From Bordetella sp. 02P26C-1 (lineage in GTDB: Bacteria; Pseudomonadota; Gammaproteobacteria; Burkholderiales; Burkholderiaceae_B), in contig NZ_WSJB01000022.1 of assembly GCF_009763255.1 (NCBI RefSeq), positions 62,001-126,000 on the forward strand: a DNA stretch of 64,000 nt. The letters are read 5' to 3'. The notes under the pieces are model-generated. The model was not told the origin of the DNA, ran no database searches, and saw only the letters and a list, made by a program, of their open reading frames with translations. Below, piece after piece: positions 14,890 through 26,594 of this stretch; the stretch's first letter is position 1, and the number at the start of each line of letters is the position of its first letter. Both the position numbers and the translations under genes were made by a program.

Positions 14890-15372
14890 ATGCCCACCGT
14901 ACCTATCGCCGCTTTCTGGGACCGCGAGGCGGCTGTCCAAGCCGTGCAGTTGGCGCGGCCGATGCTTGAGAATTCCCTATCGATCAAAAGCGTGTGTGAA
15001 AGCGGATTTCTGCACGTGGTGATCATGAACCCGCTTGCCACGCCCGCCGATTGTGATTTCGCCAATGCGATCCTCTATGAAGAAAGCATTGGTAATCCGG
15101 AGGAATGGGATGCGGACTATGGCGCTTACGCACGCGGCAAGGCGCGATTGAGTTGGCGGACTGGGCTGTCCAGCCACGAGATCTTGGCCCTAAAACCGCA
15201 TCTTTTACATGCCAAGGACGCGCCAGTCTGGGGCAGTGTTTGCCAGGATGGAATCGTGGTGGGCGTCAGTGGCGCAAACCCGTGGTTCGACGAGGCCTTT
15301 GCGCGTGCCGTCGCAGCGTTATTCAAGGCCGTGGTGCAAGGGCGATGCGACGAGGAGTTTCGGGATCGTTAG
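14890..15372 (+). CDS. hypothetical protein, duplicated 3' end
   Basis: A 160-residue soluble protein that I cannot place firmly. The middle has two Trp-containing acidic segments (NPEEWDADYGAYARGKARLSW) and the C-terminal part WGSVCQDGIVVGVSGANPWF followed by an Ala-rich helix is faintly like GlcG/HbpS-type heme-binding proteins, which is only a guess. AAGGAA lies seven bases before the ATG. Its last 105 bases recur at 16428-16532, on the far side of the microcin-like locus, so this gene marks one border of an inserted or duplicated segment. Confidence 0.6.
   Translation: MPTVPIAAFWDREAAVQAVQLARPMLENSLSIKSVCESGFLHVVIMNPLATPADCDFANAILYEESIGNPEEWDADYGAYARGKARLSWRTGLSSHEILALKPHLLHAKDAPVWGSVCQDGIVVGVSGANPWFDEAFARAVAALFKAVVQGRCDEEFRDR
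15267..15371 (+). repeat. 105-bp direct repeat, copy A (3' end of the 14890-15372 gene)
   Basis: This stretch, from CAGTGGC to GGGATCGTTA, aligns without gaps to 16428-16532 with eight mismatches by eye (about 92% identity). Here it is the intact coding end of the upstream gene. Confidence 0.9.
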
Positions 15373-15394
15373 AAAGCTGAGCCCCCGGCGGATG

Positions 15395-15423
15395 ACGCGT
15401 CCCTCGCATTGCGAGCGACGCGT
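15395..15423. terminator. hairpin between convergent genes
   Basis: ACGCGTC-C-CTCGC and GCGAG-C-GACGCGT form a stem interrupted by one C/C mismatch with a tiny AT loop, followed by GTTTGTT. It sits between the convergent ends of the 14890 gene and the immunity-like gene and probably ends one or both transcripts. Confidence 0.6.
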
Positions 15424-15435
15424 GTTTGTTGATCA

Positions 15436-15840
15436 CTATTGGACACGTTGCTTCAACTTGAATCGACGCCCACTCTCGTGCTCACAAAGCCTGCCTTCCA
15501 GCGAGAAAAGTAAGACAAGGCATCCCCAGGTTCCCATAGTCTGCGATCCCCGGACGCATGCAACAGCGGTCATGACAATGCCTGCCACTAGGATAATGAA
15601 GTCTAACCGACGATTTGATATCCCGAGAAACGTCAGGCTGGGGTCATCCCAAACTTTTATCAAGCTCATCCAGACCTGTATCACAGTAGTGGCGCAGGCC
15701 CACCTTAGAATCGCTGAGATCACAGGTTTTACCGCTGCATGGCTGCTAAACGGTAGTAGGGCGACGATGACAAACCCGCCGATTGCATAGGCAATGAGCC
15801 GTTCCCGATAGACAAAGATAAAGTCCCTCGGACTGCTCAT
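15436..15840 (-). CDS. multi-pass membrane protein, putative microcin immunity protein (locus 1)
   Basis: A 134-residue protein with about four hydrophobic segments: LIAYAIGGFVIVALLPF, a helix around ATTVIQVWMSLIKVW, FIILVAGIVMTAVACV and GTWGCLVLLFSL. It starts MSSPRDFIFVYRERLIAY after a strong AGGAGG. It is paralogous to 23043-23462: YRERLIAY, W-x-DP, F-x-GI-x-NR, GTWG and L-E-x-R plus ES-x-RR are shared in order. It is encoded 40 bases downstream of the leader-peptide gene on the same strand. Position and topology match a bacteriocin immunity protein; I recognise no named family, so this function is inference. Confidence 0.62.
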   Translation of the reverse strand: MSSPRDFIFVYRERLIAYAIGGFVIVALLPFSSHAAVKPVISAILRWACATTVIQVWMSLIKVWDDPSLTFLGISNRRLDFIILVAGIVMTAVACVRGSQTMGTWGCLVLLFSLEGRLCEHESGRRFKLKQRVQ

Positions 15841-15880
15841 TGATCTTCCTCCTGAGATGATTCGGCGACAACGTAAATGA

Positions 15881-16215
15881 TCAACGGCGGTCGCGGAAAG
15901 CATGACCGAGGCGATTGCACCCCTCATCGATGGATGCGTTGACAGCGGCCCCGGCGCGCGGGTTTCTAGATAACGCACCGACGGTCGCGCCAACGCCTGC
16001 AGCGATCATATGGCAGCCCAAACCCACACCTGAGTTCTGACGCCATACCGATTCGCCATCACGATTTCTCAAGTGAATGTCAGTGGAGCTGTCGGGCTGG
16101 CGAACGAAATCAAAATGGTATCCCGCGCCATTATTCAGCCGGGGGGGGGGGCGAAGTATTGCTGTAACTCTCCCCCGGTGGCATTGTTCAGTTCAGGAGT
16201 GCTGACCGCACGCAT
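15881..16215 (-). pseudogene. microcin-like double-glycine peptide precursor, out of frame at poly-C (locus 1)
   Basis: An ATG at 16215, preceded by GGAG seven bases upstream, opens a frame MRAVSTPELNNATGG-ELQQYF. The first 15 residues match the microcin V leader register: hydrophobic at -12, Ser -11, Glu -8, Leu -7, Gly -2, Gly -1. The frame then enters a run of 11 C (16141-16151) and stops at PPPG. With 12 or 9 C the frame continues to the TGA at 15881, giving a ~111-residue precursor whose C-terminal part (NSGVGLGCHMIAAGVG ... DEGCNRLGH) is homologous to the intact copy at 23619-23951, including a Cys-X31-Cys pair. It may be phase-variable, decayed, or a sequencing error in the homopolymer. 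Confidence 0.68.
16141..16151 (-). repeat. 11-base poly-C (minus) homopolymer inside the microcin-like gene
   Basis: Eleven consecutive G on the plus strand, read as C11 in the gene. The tract begins 22 codons into the open frame, just after the leader and ELQQYF. Only lengths of 9, 12 and so on keep the gene open; 11 leads to a stop after four more codons and 10 leads to a stop after six. Long poly-C tracts drive slipped-strand phase variation in Bordetella fim promoters and bvgS, which is the precedent for suspecting a switch here. Confidence 0.85.
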
Positions 16216-16427
16216 ACGTTTTCTCCGCAAGTTGAAGTCGAATGGCATAACTGGCTTAAGATTTGACGTGATGACCTCGGCGCTCAGTCGCCCCTAGGCC
16301 CCTCAAGGCGGCGTCGATCGGAAACTTTGCCTTTAGATCATTGTCCCCATTGACTCTAGGGCAATGCCGAAAGTTGCGTCAGAATGCCCGACGTTTTGGG
16401 AAAGAATAAGACGAAGTTAGCCGGAAA
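16216..16427. other. upstream region of locus 1, no gene seen
   Basis: About 210 bases between the locus-1 leader peptide (leftward) and the repeat copy B. It should hold the microcin promoter, but I see no convincing -35/-10 pair. The reading frame leading into repeat copy B is open for only a few codons and shows no similarity to the 14890-15372 gene. Confidence 0.5.
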
Positions 16428-16532
16428 CAGTGGCACCAACTCGTGGTTCGACGAGGCCTTTGCACGTGCCATCGCAGCGTTATTCAAGGCCGTAGTGCAA
16501 GGGCGATGCGATGAGCAGTTTCGGGATCGTTA
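16428..16532 (+). repeat. 105-bp direct repeat, copy B (orphan gene 3' end)
   Basis: A copy of the last 35 codons of the 14890-15372 gene, including its stop (TAA here). In frame it reads SGTNSWFDEAFARAIAALFK and on to QFRDR. Several of the eight differences are synonymous or conservative (Val to Ile, Glu to Gln), so copy B was under coding selection before it lost its 5' part. No start codon or homologous upstream sequence is present. It flanks the microcin-like locus together with copy A. Confidence 0.85.
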
Positions 16533-16636
16533 ACGCGATTTCCTCCGAACATCCTATTCCCCCGCTCGTACCGCTTTCCTCATGCTCGGGCACGGCAGTT
16601 GCCGTCTCGTTAGGGCCTACACTCGGAGGAAGCATC

Positions 16637-16813
16637 ATGAAAGAACCGCAGAGCAAACCCGCGCCCACTTCGGACGACACGCCTCGCGAACAGCAGGCGA
16701 GTCACAACGACAATCAGAACCGAAGCAAGAAAGACGGCCACACTTCGCAGATCGGAACCGGCCAGGACCAGCAGAGCCAACGCCAACGTGGCGGCGGCGC
16801 ACGTCGCGGTTAG
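16637..16813 (+). CDS. small hydrophilic Gln/Arg/Ser-rich protein
   Basis: A 58-residue, very polar peptide beginning MKEPQSKPAPTSDD and ending in QSQRQRGGGARRG. GGAGGA is placed well before the ATG. Composition suggests an intrinsically disordered, possibly nucleic-acid-binding stress peptide, but I recognise no family. It is followed by a good terminator hairpin, which supports it being a real monocistronic gene. Confidence 0.55.
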   Translation: MKEPQSKPAPTSDDTPREQQASHNDNQNRSKKDGHTSQIGTGQDQQSQRQRGGGARRG

Positions 16814-16841
16814 TCGGCATTAAAGCGCTGAGGCTTGTGTC

Positions 16842-16882
16842 AGGCGTCGTTTCCGTCACAGGAACGGCGCCTTTATCTTTTC
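16842..16882 (+). terminator. rho-independent terminator
   Basis: AGGCGTCGTTTCC and GGAACGGCGCCT pair with one or two mismatches around a 6-base loop and are followed by TTTATCTTTT. It closes the 58-residue gene. Confidence 0.7.
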
Positions 16883-16924
16883 CGCGCCCAACCAGTGTGA
16901 GTCATGGTATGAGTCAGACCGCGT

Positions 16925-17782
16925 TCAATCGGCCGACTTCAGCGACATCAAATATTCGGCCATATCATGCGCGTCTTGGTCGGTAACGTGCAGATTCGGC
17001 ATGGCGGTACCGGGCTTGATCTTCTCCGGCTCGCGCAACCACCGCTGCATGTTGGGTAAGGTGTTGGGTAGCGTTCCCGCGATATAGGCGCGGTCGGCCA
17101 TTCCCTCCAGCGAGGGCCCGACGTGTAGCCTCGGTCCGGTGCCCCCGGGGACGATATGACATGTCAGACACAGGTACTGCTGCATCGCGCGCACCCCCGC
17201 TTCGTCTTCCGCTGTTCTACCTGCCGTGTTCGACGCAGACGTAGCGTCCGCCAGTGTCCACTCGGGAGTTTGGTTGACTGTGCTTTGATACGCCATAGGG
17301 GAAAGATCCGGCAGCGTACGCATAAACGCCACGACATCCCAGATGCGCTCGTCGCTCAGGCGATATCGCCATGCCGGCATGCCGGTCATCTTGATGCCTT
17401 CACGAATCATCCAGAAAATCTCATTCGCTGGCCTTTCCCGCGCGCTTGCCACCAGGGGCGGGGGGGCCGGATTGAGCCCCATGGCAAAGGGCTGCGGCGC
17501 CACGCCCGGCGCGCCATGACATTGCACGCAATGGGCTTCGTAAATCTGCAGCCCGCGCTTCGCCCGGCCCGGCTCGGCCAAATCCGGTATCTCGATGGCT
17601 GCGGCCCGGGCGGATACGGACCGATCCAGCGCATAACCCACCACGCGATAAATAGGCGCCGTATGACTATGCGTCGCGCTGACGTCATACCAGCCGTTGC
17701 GGATCGCCACCACGCCGACGGCCGCCGCTGTCACCGCGAGGGCGGCGAGGCTGCCGAGTAGGACGAGCTTGCATCGACTCAT
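16925..17782 (-). CDS. diheme cytochrome c
   Basis: A 285-residue protein with an N-terminal hydrophobic signal/anchor (LVLLGSLAALAVTAAAVGVV) and two heme c motifs, CVQCH near residues 85-89 and CLTCH near 205-209, each with a downstream Met ligand candidate (TGMPAW; GTAMPNL). It is periplasmic or membrane-anchored and probably carries electrons to the caa3 oxidase encoded next to it. GGAGG precedes the ATG. The second cytochrome c gene lies 20 bases upstream on the same strand. Confidence 0.88.
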   Translation of the reverse strand: MSRCKLVLLGSLAALAVTAAAVGVVAIRNGWYDVSATHSHTAPIYRVVGYALDRSVSARAAAIEIPDLAEPGRAKRGLQIYEAHCVQCHGAPGVAPQPFAMGLNPAPPPLVASARERPANEIFWMIREGIKMTGMPAWRYRLSDERIWDVVAFMRTLPDLSPMAYQSTVNQTPEWTLADATSASNTAGRTAEDEAGVRAMQQYLCLTCHIVPGGTGPRLHVGPSLEGMADRAYIAGTLPNTLPNMQRWLREPEKIKPGTAMPNLHVTDQDAHDMAEYLMSLKSAD

Positions 17783-22981: not shown

Positions 22982-23042
22982 GCACCGGCTTTATCGTGTC
23001 GCTCCGGCTATAGCACTTTGAGGCCGTTTCGATGAGCGCGTC

Positions 23043-23462
23043 TCAAATGGAATCTTCGTCCTCGCGCGCCTGTTTAGCCCGGTACCTGCGCCAACTCTCG
23101 CGCTCGGTGATTCTGACCTCCAGTGCAAACGCTAGCAATATGAACCCCCATGTCCCGAGGCCGTACGCGCGACGCCACGAGGCTACGCTGATTAAAACGC
23201 AACCGCCTACAACTAAAACAGCTTGAACTACGCGGTTGGGAATGCCCATAAAGCTCGTGATGGGGTCTTTCCAAATTTGTGTGAGATGTGCCCAGACATG
23301 GTTGGTGGCGCTTACCAATATCCACGATGAAATTGCCGGCATGGCTGTCAGAATTACTGGCGCAACGTGGGTATATGGCAACGAAAAATAGATGATCGCG
23401 CCCACTGAGTAGGCGATGAGTCTTTCACGGTAGGCGACCCGCGTGTCGCGGGGAGGACTCAA
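23043..23462 (-). CDS. multi-pass membrane protein, putative microcin immunity protein (locus 2)
   Basis: A 139-residue protein with about four hydrophobic segments, among them LIAYSVGAIIYFSLPY, a helix around AMPAISSWILVSATNHVW, VVQAVLVVGGCVLISVAS and GLGTWGFILLAFAL, and a charged C-terminal tail. The TTG at 23462 is taken as start: AAAGGAG lies seven bases before it and the protein then begins (M)SPPRDTRVAYRERLIAY, aligning with MSSPRDFIFVYRERLIAY of locus 1. The open frame continues upstream to 23534 without similarity. It lies 156 bases downstream of the leader peptide gene. Immunity is inferred from position, topology and paralogy. Confidence 0.62.
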   Translation of the reverse strand: MSPPRDTRVAYRERLIAYSVGAIIYFSLPYTHVAPVILTAMPAISSWILVSATNHVWAHLTQIWKDPITSFMGIPNRVVQAVLVVGGCVLISVASWRRAYGLGTWGFILLAFALEVRITERESWRRYRAKQAREDEDSI

Positions 23463-23618
23463 GGCAGTGCTCCTTTCAGATTTTTCGCGGGGGAGTTGAT
23501 ACGAACGCGATAGTTGCTCATGTCTCGAAGTCAACGAATCGTTCGGCCGGGCCAGTCAGGGGGCAGTCGTTTAGCAGCCGCCATGACTTGCATAAACGGT
23601 GTGTCCGATCCTGGCAAC

Positions 23619-23951
23619 TTAACGGTTGGCGCGTGATGAATGACCGAGCGCGTTGCAACTGTGCCCAGCGGCGAATCCCGCGACTCCGCCCGCGATTGGA
23701 TTGCCACTGAATATTGTGGTGGCCGTTCCTACACCGGTACCCACCATATAACAGCCCAGAGCGACACCGGAGTTCTTTGTCAGAATCGTGTTGCCGGATT
23801 GATCTTTCACATAAAAATCGGTTGATCCGTCACGGTTGCCGTGAGCTCCTATACTGAACCGAGGTTCGCGGTGACGCTCCCGGTGCTCAAAGTATTGCTG
23901 TAACTCACCTCCAGCCACGATGGATAGCTGCGACATGCGAATCGACTTCAT
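23619..23951 (-). CDS. microcin-like precursor peptide with double-glycine leader (locus 2, intact)
   Basis: A 110-residue precursor. The leader MKSIRMSQLSIVAGG is exactly 15 residues and fits the microcin V register (Ile -12, Leu -7, Val -4, Gly -2, Gly -1). The predicted core of 95 residues begins ELQQYFEHRERH and becomes glycine/alanine-rich and amphipathic (NSGVALGCYMVGTGVG, then NPIAGGVAGFAAGHSCNALG). Two cysteines are separated by 31 residues, exactly as in the locus-1 copy, and may form a disulfide. AAGGA lies seven bases before the ATG. Core size is close to microcin V (88). No exporter or maturation gene is adjacent. No family name recognised; class II microcin is inference. Confidence 0.65.
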   Translation of the reverse strand: MKSIRMSQLSIVAGGELQQYFEHRERHREPRFSIGAHGNRDGSTDFYVKDQSGNTILTKNSGVALGCYMVGTGVGTATTIFSGNPIAGGVAGFAAGHSCNALGHSSRANR

Positions 23952-24180
23952 AAGTTTTCCTTAAGAAAGTGGAGCAACGACGACACCTATAAAGGGGAGG
24001 AACGGAAGGAAATCTCGGGAACTTCATACATGCATGGATATAAAATTCAGCGCACTGATCCGCGATGTCGAGCCCCTGCAGGTCTCCGGTTCACACTATA
24101 GGTTTGGCGCAGCTCTGCGATTACATCAGGTCGGATACGTAGGAAAAATCGGACCGTTCGGACAACGAGCCATACAAAAA
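23952..24180. other. upstream region of locus 2, no gene seen
   Basis: Nearly 230 bases between the locus-2 precursor and the icd terminator. It should carry the leftward promoter of the microcin-like gene. AT-rich patches occur around 24040-24050 and 24095-24105, but no confident promoter can be assigned and no coding frame is convincing. Confidence 0.5.
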
Positions 24181-24216
24181 AAGGCCTGAATCCGGTTCAC
24201 ACCGGGTTCAGGCCTT
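24181..24216 (-). terminator. rho-independent terminator of icd
   Basis: AAGGCCTGAA-TCCGG and CCGGG-TTCAGGCCTT pair over more than 12 bp with a small loop; on the minus strand a run of T (TTTTTTTG) follows. It lies about 85 bases after the icd stop codon and also separates icd from the locus-2 peptide. Confidence 0.85.
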
Positions 24217-24299
24217 ATTGACTTTCATTACTGTATAAGCAGGACGGTTGGACACTGACCCGCTTGATGGAGCGCTTTAGCGCCCCTCAATCACCCAAC

Positions 24300-26594
<2,295 letters not shown>

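What the first reader, a model, noticed from the sequence alone, without database searches (positions are those of the whole stretch)
23043..23951. Intact microcin-like precursor with a double-glycine leader and a putative immunity protein (locus 2)
The sequence shows a 110-residue precursor whose first 15 residues, MKSIRMSQLSIVAGG, fall in the same register as the microcin V leader (hydrophobic -12, Leu -7, Val -4, Gly-Gly at -2/-1), a 95-residue Gly/Ala-rich core with two Cys, a good ribosome site, and a four-helix membrane protein downstream on the same strand. Established knowledge: class II microcins have 15-residue GG leaders cut by a C39-peptidase ABC exporter, and their immunity proteins are small membrane proteins encoded next to them. 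That this locus makes an antibacterial peptide is inference. I recognise no named family for either gene.
Basis: partly seen in the sequence, partly recalled or inferred. Interest (0 to 1): 0.88.

Follow-up and report, generated by a model that had tools for sequence, protein, structure and literature searches.

The report
Microcin-like gene pair in Bordetella
A Bordetella-type bacterium carries a small secreted-peptide gene with a microcin-style export tag beside a small membrane-protein gene, most likely an antibacterial peptide and its immunity protein, and a matching export machine lies elsewhere in the same genome; no killing has been shown.

Summary
Window 23619-23951(-) encodes a 110-residue protein with a 15-residue double-glycine leader. 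The partner membrane protein starts later than listed (TTG at 23462, 139 aa). A syntenic pair exists in Bordetella genomosp. 4 (precursor 51% identical). The genome has one C39-peptidase ABC exporter, on another contig, with catalytic triad, HlyD and TolC genes and six more peptides with double-glycine-type leaders. Profiles of exporter-locus peptides and of the window family align over residues 1-16 only: shared leader, different cores. Of 10 genomes (window's, 8 congeners, G009) only the two with an intact precursor have a C39 match. A distant relative in another genus (G011) lies beside its own HlyD, C39 ABC and TolC genes. So the family is very probably C39 cargo; antibacterial action with membrane immunity is the best reading but inferred. 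A second copy at 15.4-16.2 kb is out of frame at an 11-base C run while its partner stays open; a relic in G009 looks alike. No Pfam, NCBIfam, PHROGs or PDB-sequence family fits. Rivals: Nap-like self-lysis peptide, signal or other non-toxic cargo.

The parts
23907..23951 (-). 15-residue double-glycine leader of the precursor
23619..23906 (-). 95-residue core with Cys67 and Cys99 (and stop codon)
23043..23462 (-). partner membrane protein, 139 aa, TTG start; putative immunity protein
16171..16215 (-). leader MRAVSTPELNNATGG of the second, out-of-frame copy (locus 1)
16141..16151 (-). run of 11 C at which locus 1 loses its frame
15884..16147 (-). core half of locus 1 in another frame than its leader
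15436..15840 (-). open partner membrane gene of locus 1, 134 aa
24181..24216 (.). terminator-like hairpin (16 pairs) between icd and the precursor
   Evidence: consensus scan only

Best explanation
A class II microcin-like bacteriocin module whose exporter is encoded elsewhere. The 110-aa precursor is recognised through its leader by the genome's single C39-peptidase ABC exporter (G000:C1), cut after Gly15, and its core of about 10 kDa, perhaps with a Cys67-Cys99 disulfide, is released through the HlyD and TolC partners. The Gly-rich C-terminal half of the core inserts in or permeabilises the inner membrane of related bacteria, and the 139-aa partner sits in the producer's inner membrane and blocks it. 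Shown here: leader, synteny, exporter presence and triad, leader sharing, a relative in an exporter gene cluster. Inferred: cleavage, secretion, disulfide, target membrane, killing, immunity.
For: Exporter with C30/H103/D119 (same spacing as CvaB C32/H105/D121 quoted in passages of PMC9746304), HlyD and TolC genes and six peptides with double-glycine-type leaders beside it. Same layout in Bordetella genomosp. 4, exporter 85% identical. C39 match in 1 of 9 other genomes searched (8 congeners and G009), the one with the intact precursor. Window family and exporter-locus peptides align only over residues 1-16, E 6.8e-5. In G011 a peptide with leader MRLLTEDEVMQVSGA and a related core (18.8 bits against a core-only profile; best of 2,000 shuffles 9.2) lies next to HlyD, C39 ABC and TolC genes. 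Precursor and partner diverge faster (pN/pS 0.42 and 0.57) than exporter (0.13), HlyD (0.20), GST (0.19) and icd (0.14). Locus 1 and the G009 relic have broken precursors and open membrane ORFs.
Against: No activity, secretion or expression data. G011's cluster shows no obvious four-helix partner, but a JmjC-domain gene. The G009 membrane ORF is only marginally similar to the window partner (8.5 bits; reached by 0 of 863 scored full shuffles and 1 of 931 scored pattern-keeping shuffles; hhalign probability 5.7%). G009's relic lies in a genome without a C39 match. Precursor and partner are 156 bp apart and no sigma-70-like promoter was found. The window leader scores 7.0 where exporter-locus leaders score 15.5-28.9 left out in turn. 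The first whole-genome searches did not report G011 at E <= 0.01. The fast divergence could also be relaxed constraint, and synonymous sites are near saturation.
Confidence: 0.62

Rival explanations
1. A C39-exported peptide that acts on the producer's own population (stationary-phase lysis, like the Neisseria Naps), with the partner as a brake, not a weapon against competitors.
For: Naps are GG peptides with a C39 peptidase, have no detectable antimicrobial activity, promote autolysis and are likely phase variable through homopolymeric tracts (passages of PMC11798529). Locus 1 breaks at an 11-base C run, the only C or G run of 8 or more in the window.
Against: The exporter is an ABC protein with HlyD and TolC genes, whereas the Nap island has a FapF-like channel; no sequence comparison with Naps was made here; tract variation not shown.
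Confidence: 0.13
2. A secreted signal or other non-toxic C39 cargo; the membrane protein is a sensor or accessory protein.
For: C39 exporters also carry signals (recalled); several unrelated cores share the exporter's leader; no toxicity shown.
Against: Core of 95 residues is large for a signal peptide; no regulator gene was seen next to the pair; partner ORFs stay open where the precursor is broken.
Confidence: 0.17
3. Not exported: a cytoplasmic or periplasmic protein whose N-terminus resembles a double-glycine leader by chance, in a fast-evolving orphan pair.
For: Window leader scores modestly, second of 2,737 starts; exporter lies on another contig.
Against: G002 counterpart scores 19.3; leader-only profile match; relative in an exporter cluster; co-occurrence with C39.
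Confidence: 0.08

Closest known systems
Class II microcins of Enterobacterales (microcin V type)
   Same: 15-residue GG leader, C39 ABC exporter with the triad in the same spacing, HlyD and TolC genes in the genome, small membrane gene next to the precursor
   Different: No usable match to a Pfam or NCBIfam family; exporter on another contig; core about 10 kDa; no activity known. A direct comparison with the ten verified microcins was not made.
Moraxella catarrhalis McbABCI
   Same: Double-glycine precursor followed by a small gene with four predicted helices that was shown to be the immunity factor (passages of PMC2761928)
   Different: There four genes form one operon and McbI has 74 residues; here the pair stands apart from the exporter and the partner has 139 residues.
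Caulobacter Cdz glycine-zipper system
   Same: Small Gly-rich exported proteins and a small membrane immunity protein with three predicted spans (passages of PMC5380434); the window core has one GxxxGxxxG and the G002 core two
   Different: Cdz uses two proteins, CdzC and CdzD, encoded with their exporter; here one precursor per locus, exporter elsewhere, and the G011 relative has no GxxxGxxxG.
Neisseria autolysis peptides (Naps)
   Same: Several GG peptides, a C39 peptidase and a homopolymeric tract in a peptide gene (passages of PMC11798529)
   Different: Nap export channel NapF is FapF-like; here an ABC exporter with HlyD and TolC genes. No sequence comparison was made.

Membership tests
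Class II microcin | N-terminal leader ending in GG or GA | tested here: met
   window GG, G002 GG, locus 1 GG, G011 GA; the G009 relic ends NG
Class II microcin | C39 peptidase ABC exporter with Cys/His/Asp triad in the genome | tested here: met
   C30/H103/D119
Class II microcin | Membrane fusion protein and TolC-type protein | tested here: met
   HlyD_3 and OEP matches next to the exporter
Class II microcin | Mature peptide under 10 kDa | tested here: inconclusive
   core 10.04 kDa in the window, 9.83 kDa in G002
Class II microcin | Nearby small inner-membrane immunity protein (51-216 aa) | tested here: inconclusive
   139 aa, adjacent, four helices at low confidence; protection not testable here
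Class II microcin | Antibacterial activity | not testable with these tools
   none
Class II microcin | Sequence similarity to the ten verified microcins | not tested
   the ten sequences were not fetched; Pfam and NCBIfam scans only
Cdz system | Two glycine-zipper proteins encoded together with their exporter | tested here: not met
   one precursor per locus, exporter on another contig
Neisseria Naps | Self-lysis in stationary phase without killing of competitors | not testable with these tools
   none

The most novel reading that the evidence does not exclude
Some Bordetella genomospecies keep a dispersed one-exporter arsenal: a C39 hub with several cargo peptides plus satellite peptide-immunity modules elsewhere in the chromosome, at least one of which switches on and off through a C run, so that neighbours differ in what they secrete while all keep the immunity genes.
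Probability: 0.15. Interest if true: 0.75.

Novelty: new member of a known kind. Interest (0 to 1): 0.5.

Why it matters
The ten class II microcins verified by 2022 come from Escherichia coli and Klebsiella (PMC9746304, abstract and passages); later abstracts in the listing report Serratia and Acinetobacter. A Bordetella system with one exporter, several cargo genes beside it and separate cargo-partner modules would extend the kind to another lineage and offers a clear test of cargo sharing through a common leader. My searches of the held open-access library listed no paper whose title or listed abstract reports a Bordetella microcin or C39 bacteriocin; papers outside that library were not searched and most listed papers were not opened.

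Tried and rejected
Partner-profile hits outside the two Bordetella genomes (seven genomes, E 2e-5 to 9.5e-3): I looked at three (G162, G156, G184), which share one conserved neighbourhood without a precursor; G029, G288, G014 and G191 were not inspected. Precursor-profile hits in G014 and G278 were inspected and show no leader; G275 and G079 were not opened. Weak hits (G326, G045, G038, G014, G292, G090, G325, G316 and a third place in the window's own contig) were viewed in the correct strand and show no leader at the start of the match; my first view showed the wrong strand for the minus-strand hits. The seven weak order-level hits were not opened. Of the 19 exporter neighbourhoods scanned only the L069 peptide was tested against the window core profile; other leader-type ORFs there look different by eye. 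Plasmids, phages and viral contigs: no relative. Class sample of 331 genomes at E <= 0.001: only the window's own. Empty-site comparison failed: in the 4 of 7 congeners with a GST match at E <= 1e-40, icd was not found in the 18 kb fetched. Fold search of the partner model: 0 matches at E <= 0.001, on a low-confidence model. No PDB sequence match for either profile at E <= 1. The precursor structure job had not finished at the last look. The PADLOC library was not searched.

Full report
What is there. Window 23619-23951(-) encodes a 110-residue protein beginning MKSIRMSQLSIVAGG, with Ile at -12, Leu at -7, Val at -4 and Gly-Gly at -2/-1. AAGGA lies 6 nt before the ATG. The core has 95 residues, 15 Gly, 9 Ala, Cys at 67 and 99, about 10.0 kDa, with one GxxxGxxxG motif. 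The next gene on the same strand was listed as 163 aa; its homologues and an AAAGGAG site place the start at TTG 23462, giving 139 aa, 156 bp after the precursor. AlphaFold2 on three aligned sequences gives four helices at mean pLDDT 63.8.

Where it is. The window lies on contig C13 of a 4.1 Mb genome in 41 contigs. Its congener G002 matches Bordetella genomosp. 4 strain AU9919: the named contig has the same length (1,262,603) and the homologue lies at the same place. I therefore take the window's organism to be a Bordetella in the GTDB sense; its species name was not given. In G002 the order GST, partner, precursor, icd is the same as in the window; the precursor is 51% identical over 108 residues and the partner 47% over 134.

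A second copy. Window 15.4-16.2 kb holds the leader MRAVSTPELNNATGG and, in another frame, a core half 39% identical over positions 40-109. The frame is lost at a run of 11 C (16141-16151), the only C or G run of 8 or more in 64 kb; the expected number of runs of 11 or more is 0.17 by base composition and 0.04 by a first-order model. Its partner gene (15436-15840, 134 aa) is open. Phase variation, decay and assembly error cannot be told apart from one genome.

The exporter. The genome has one C39 peptidase match. It is a 712-residue ABC protein with peptidase, membrane and ATPase domains and Cys30, His103, Asp119; the spacings of 73 and 16 residues equal those of CvaB Cys32, His105, Asp121 as quoted in PMC9746304 (passages). 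HlyD- and TolC-type genes adjoin it, and six ORFs beside it have 15-residue leaders ending GG (3), GA (2) or GC (1). Bordetella genomosp. 4 has the same arrangement, with four such ORFs found by my motif scan and an exporter 85% identical. Of 9 other genomes searched (8 congeners and G009) only G002 has a C39 match. In the whole family 122 of 268 genomes have a match at E <= 0.001 and, by my hand count of that table, 43 of 268 at E <= 1e-17, so co-occurrence alone is moderate evidence.

Link between cargo and exporter. A matrix from ten exporter-locus leaders ranks the G002 precursor first of 4,168 starts in six other loci (19.3; one locus repeats the same stretch; next distinct start 7.0) and the window precursor second of 2,737 (7.0, behind a TTG start at 7.5); the exporter-locus leaders score 15.5-28.9 when left out in turn, so the window leader is a modest match and its counterpart a strong one. 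Profile comparison of the window family with seven exporter-locus peptides aligns only positions 1-16, E 6.8e-5: same leader, different cargo. I then scanned 19 exporter neighbourhoods of relatives. One, in G011, has just upstream of HlyD, C39 ABC and TolC genes a 115-aa peptide MRLLTEDEVMQVSGA... whose core scores 18.8 bits with a profile of the window cores without leader; the best of 2,000 shuffles scores 9.2. Its two Cys lie at 67 and 97. The whole-genome searches with the three-row profile had not reported G011 at E <= 0.01, so this link rests on the smaller search. Its neighbour gene carries a JmjC domain, and no four-helix partner was seen among the listed ORFs near it. G009, of another genus, has a relic with two stops and leader-like start MRLFNEEEVRWISNG; after the second stop its frame runs on into a 129-aa membrane ORF that is open and only marginally similar to the window partner. 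G009 has no C39 match.

Evolution. pN/pS between window and G002: precursor 0.42, partner 0.57, GST 0.19, icd 0.14, C39 ABC 0.13, HlyD 0.20; within the precursor, leader 0.27, residues 16-40 0.84, residues 41-110 0.36. Synonymous sites are near saturation, so these are rough, and relaxed constraint is not excluded.

Known families. No usable match in Pfam or NCBIfam for precursor (best E 0.12 and 0.13) or partner (none), none in PHROGs or among PDB sequences. The exporter-locus peptides are equally unnamed in the libraries scanned (Pfam and NCBIfam for the six of G000; Pfam for the four of G002). Intact members were found in 3 of 268 family genomes and, beyond the window's own, in 0 of 331 genomes of a class sample.

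Reading. Cargo of a C39 exporter: very likely. Bacteriocin with immunity partner: the most likely function, inferred from layout, divergence and two broken precursors with open membrane ORFs. The Neisseria Naps (PMC11798529, passages) show that such peptides can lack detectable antimicrobial activity and promote the producer's own lysis, so that rival is kept. Disulfide and membrane insertion are read from the sequence and not tested.

Papers. PMC2761928, PMC11494933, PMC11798529, PMC9746304 and PMC5380434 were seen as passages; all others only as search listings with the start of the abstract. One search found nothing on the genomosp. 4 strain.

Noticed in passing
L006 3467-5732 (G000:C1, 103000-121000): Six unnamed peptide ORFs with double-glycine-type leaders beside the C39 exporter; four of them form one alignment with three from G002 (A5).
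   Followed up: partly
L006 4660-4902 and L030 7252-7551: Double-glycine ORFs with a C-terminal hydrophobic segment and an acidic tail, unusual for a soluble microcin.
   Followed up: no
L069 11338-12228 (G011): JmjC_2-domain gene (E 2.1e-30) next to the precursor in the exporter cluster; a possible peptide-modifying oxygenase.
   Followed up: no
L086 4651-6029 (G289): Two Gly-rich peptide ORFs with leader MRELRIDEYQLVVGG near a C39 exporter, the second apparently frame-broken.
   Followed up: no
window 15000-16999 and 23000-24499: Both loci sit in stretches of lower G+C (0.54-0.58) than most of the neighbourhood (0.57-0.65).
   Followed up: no
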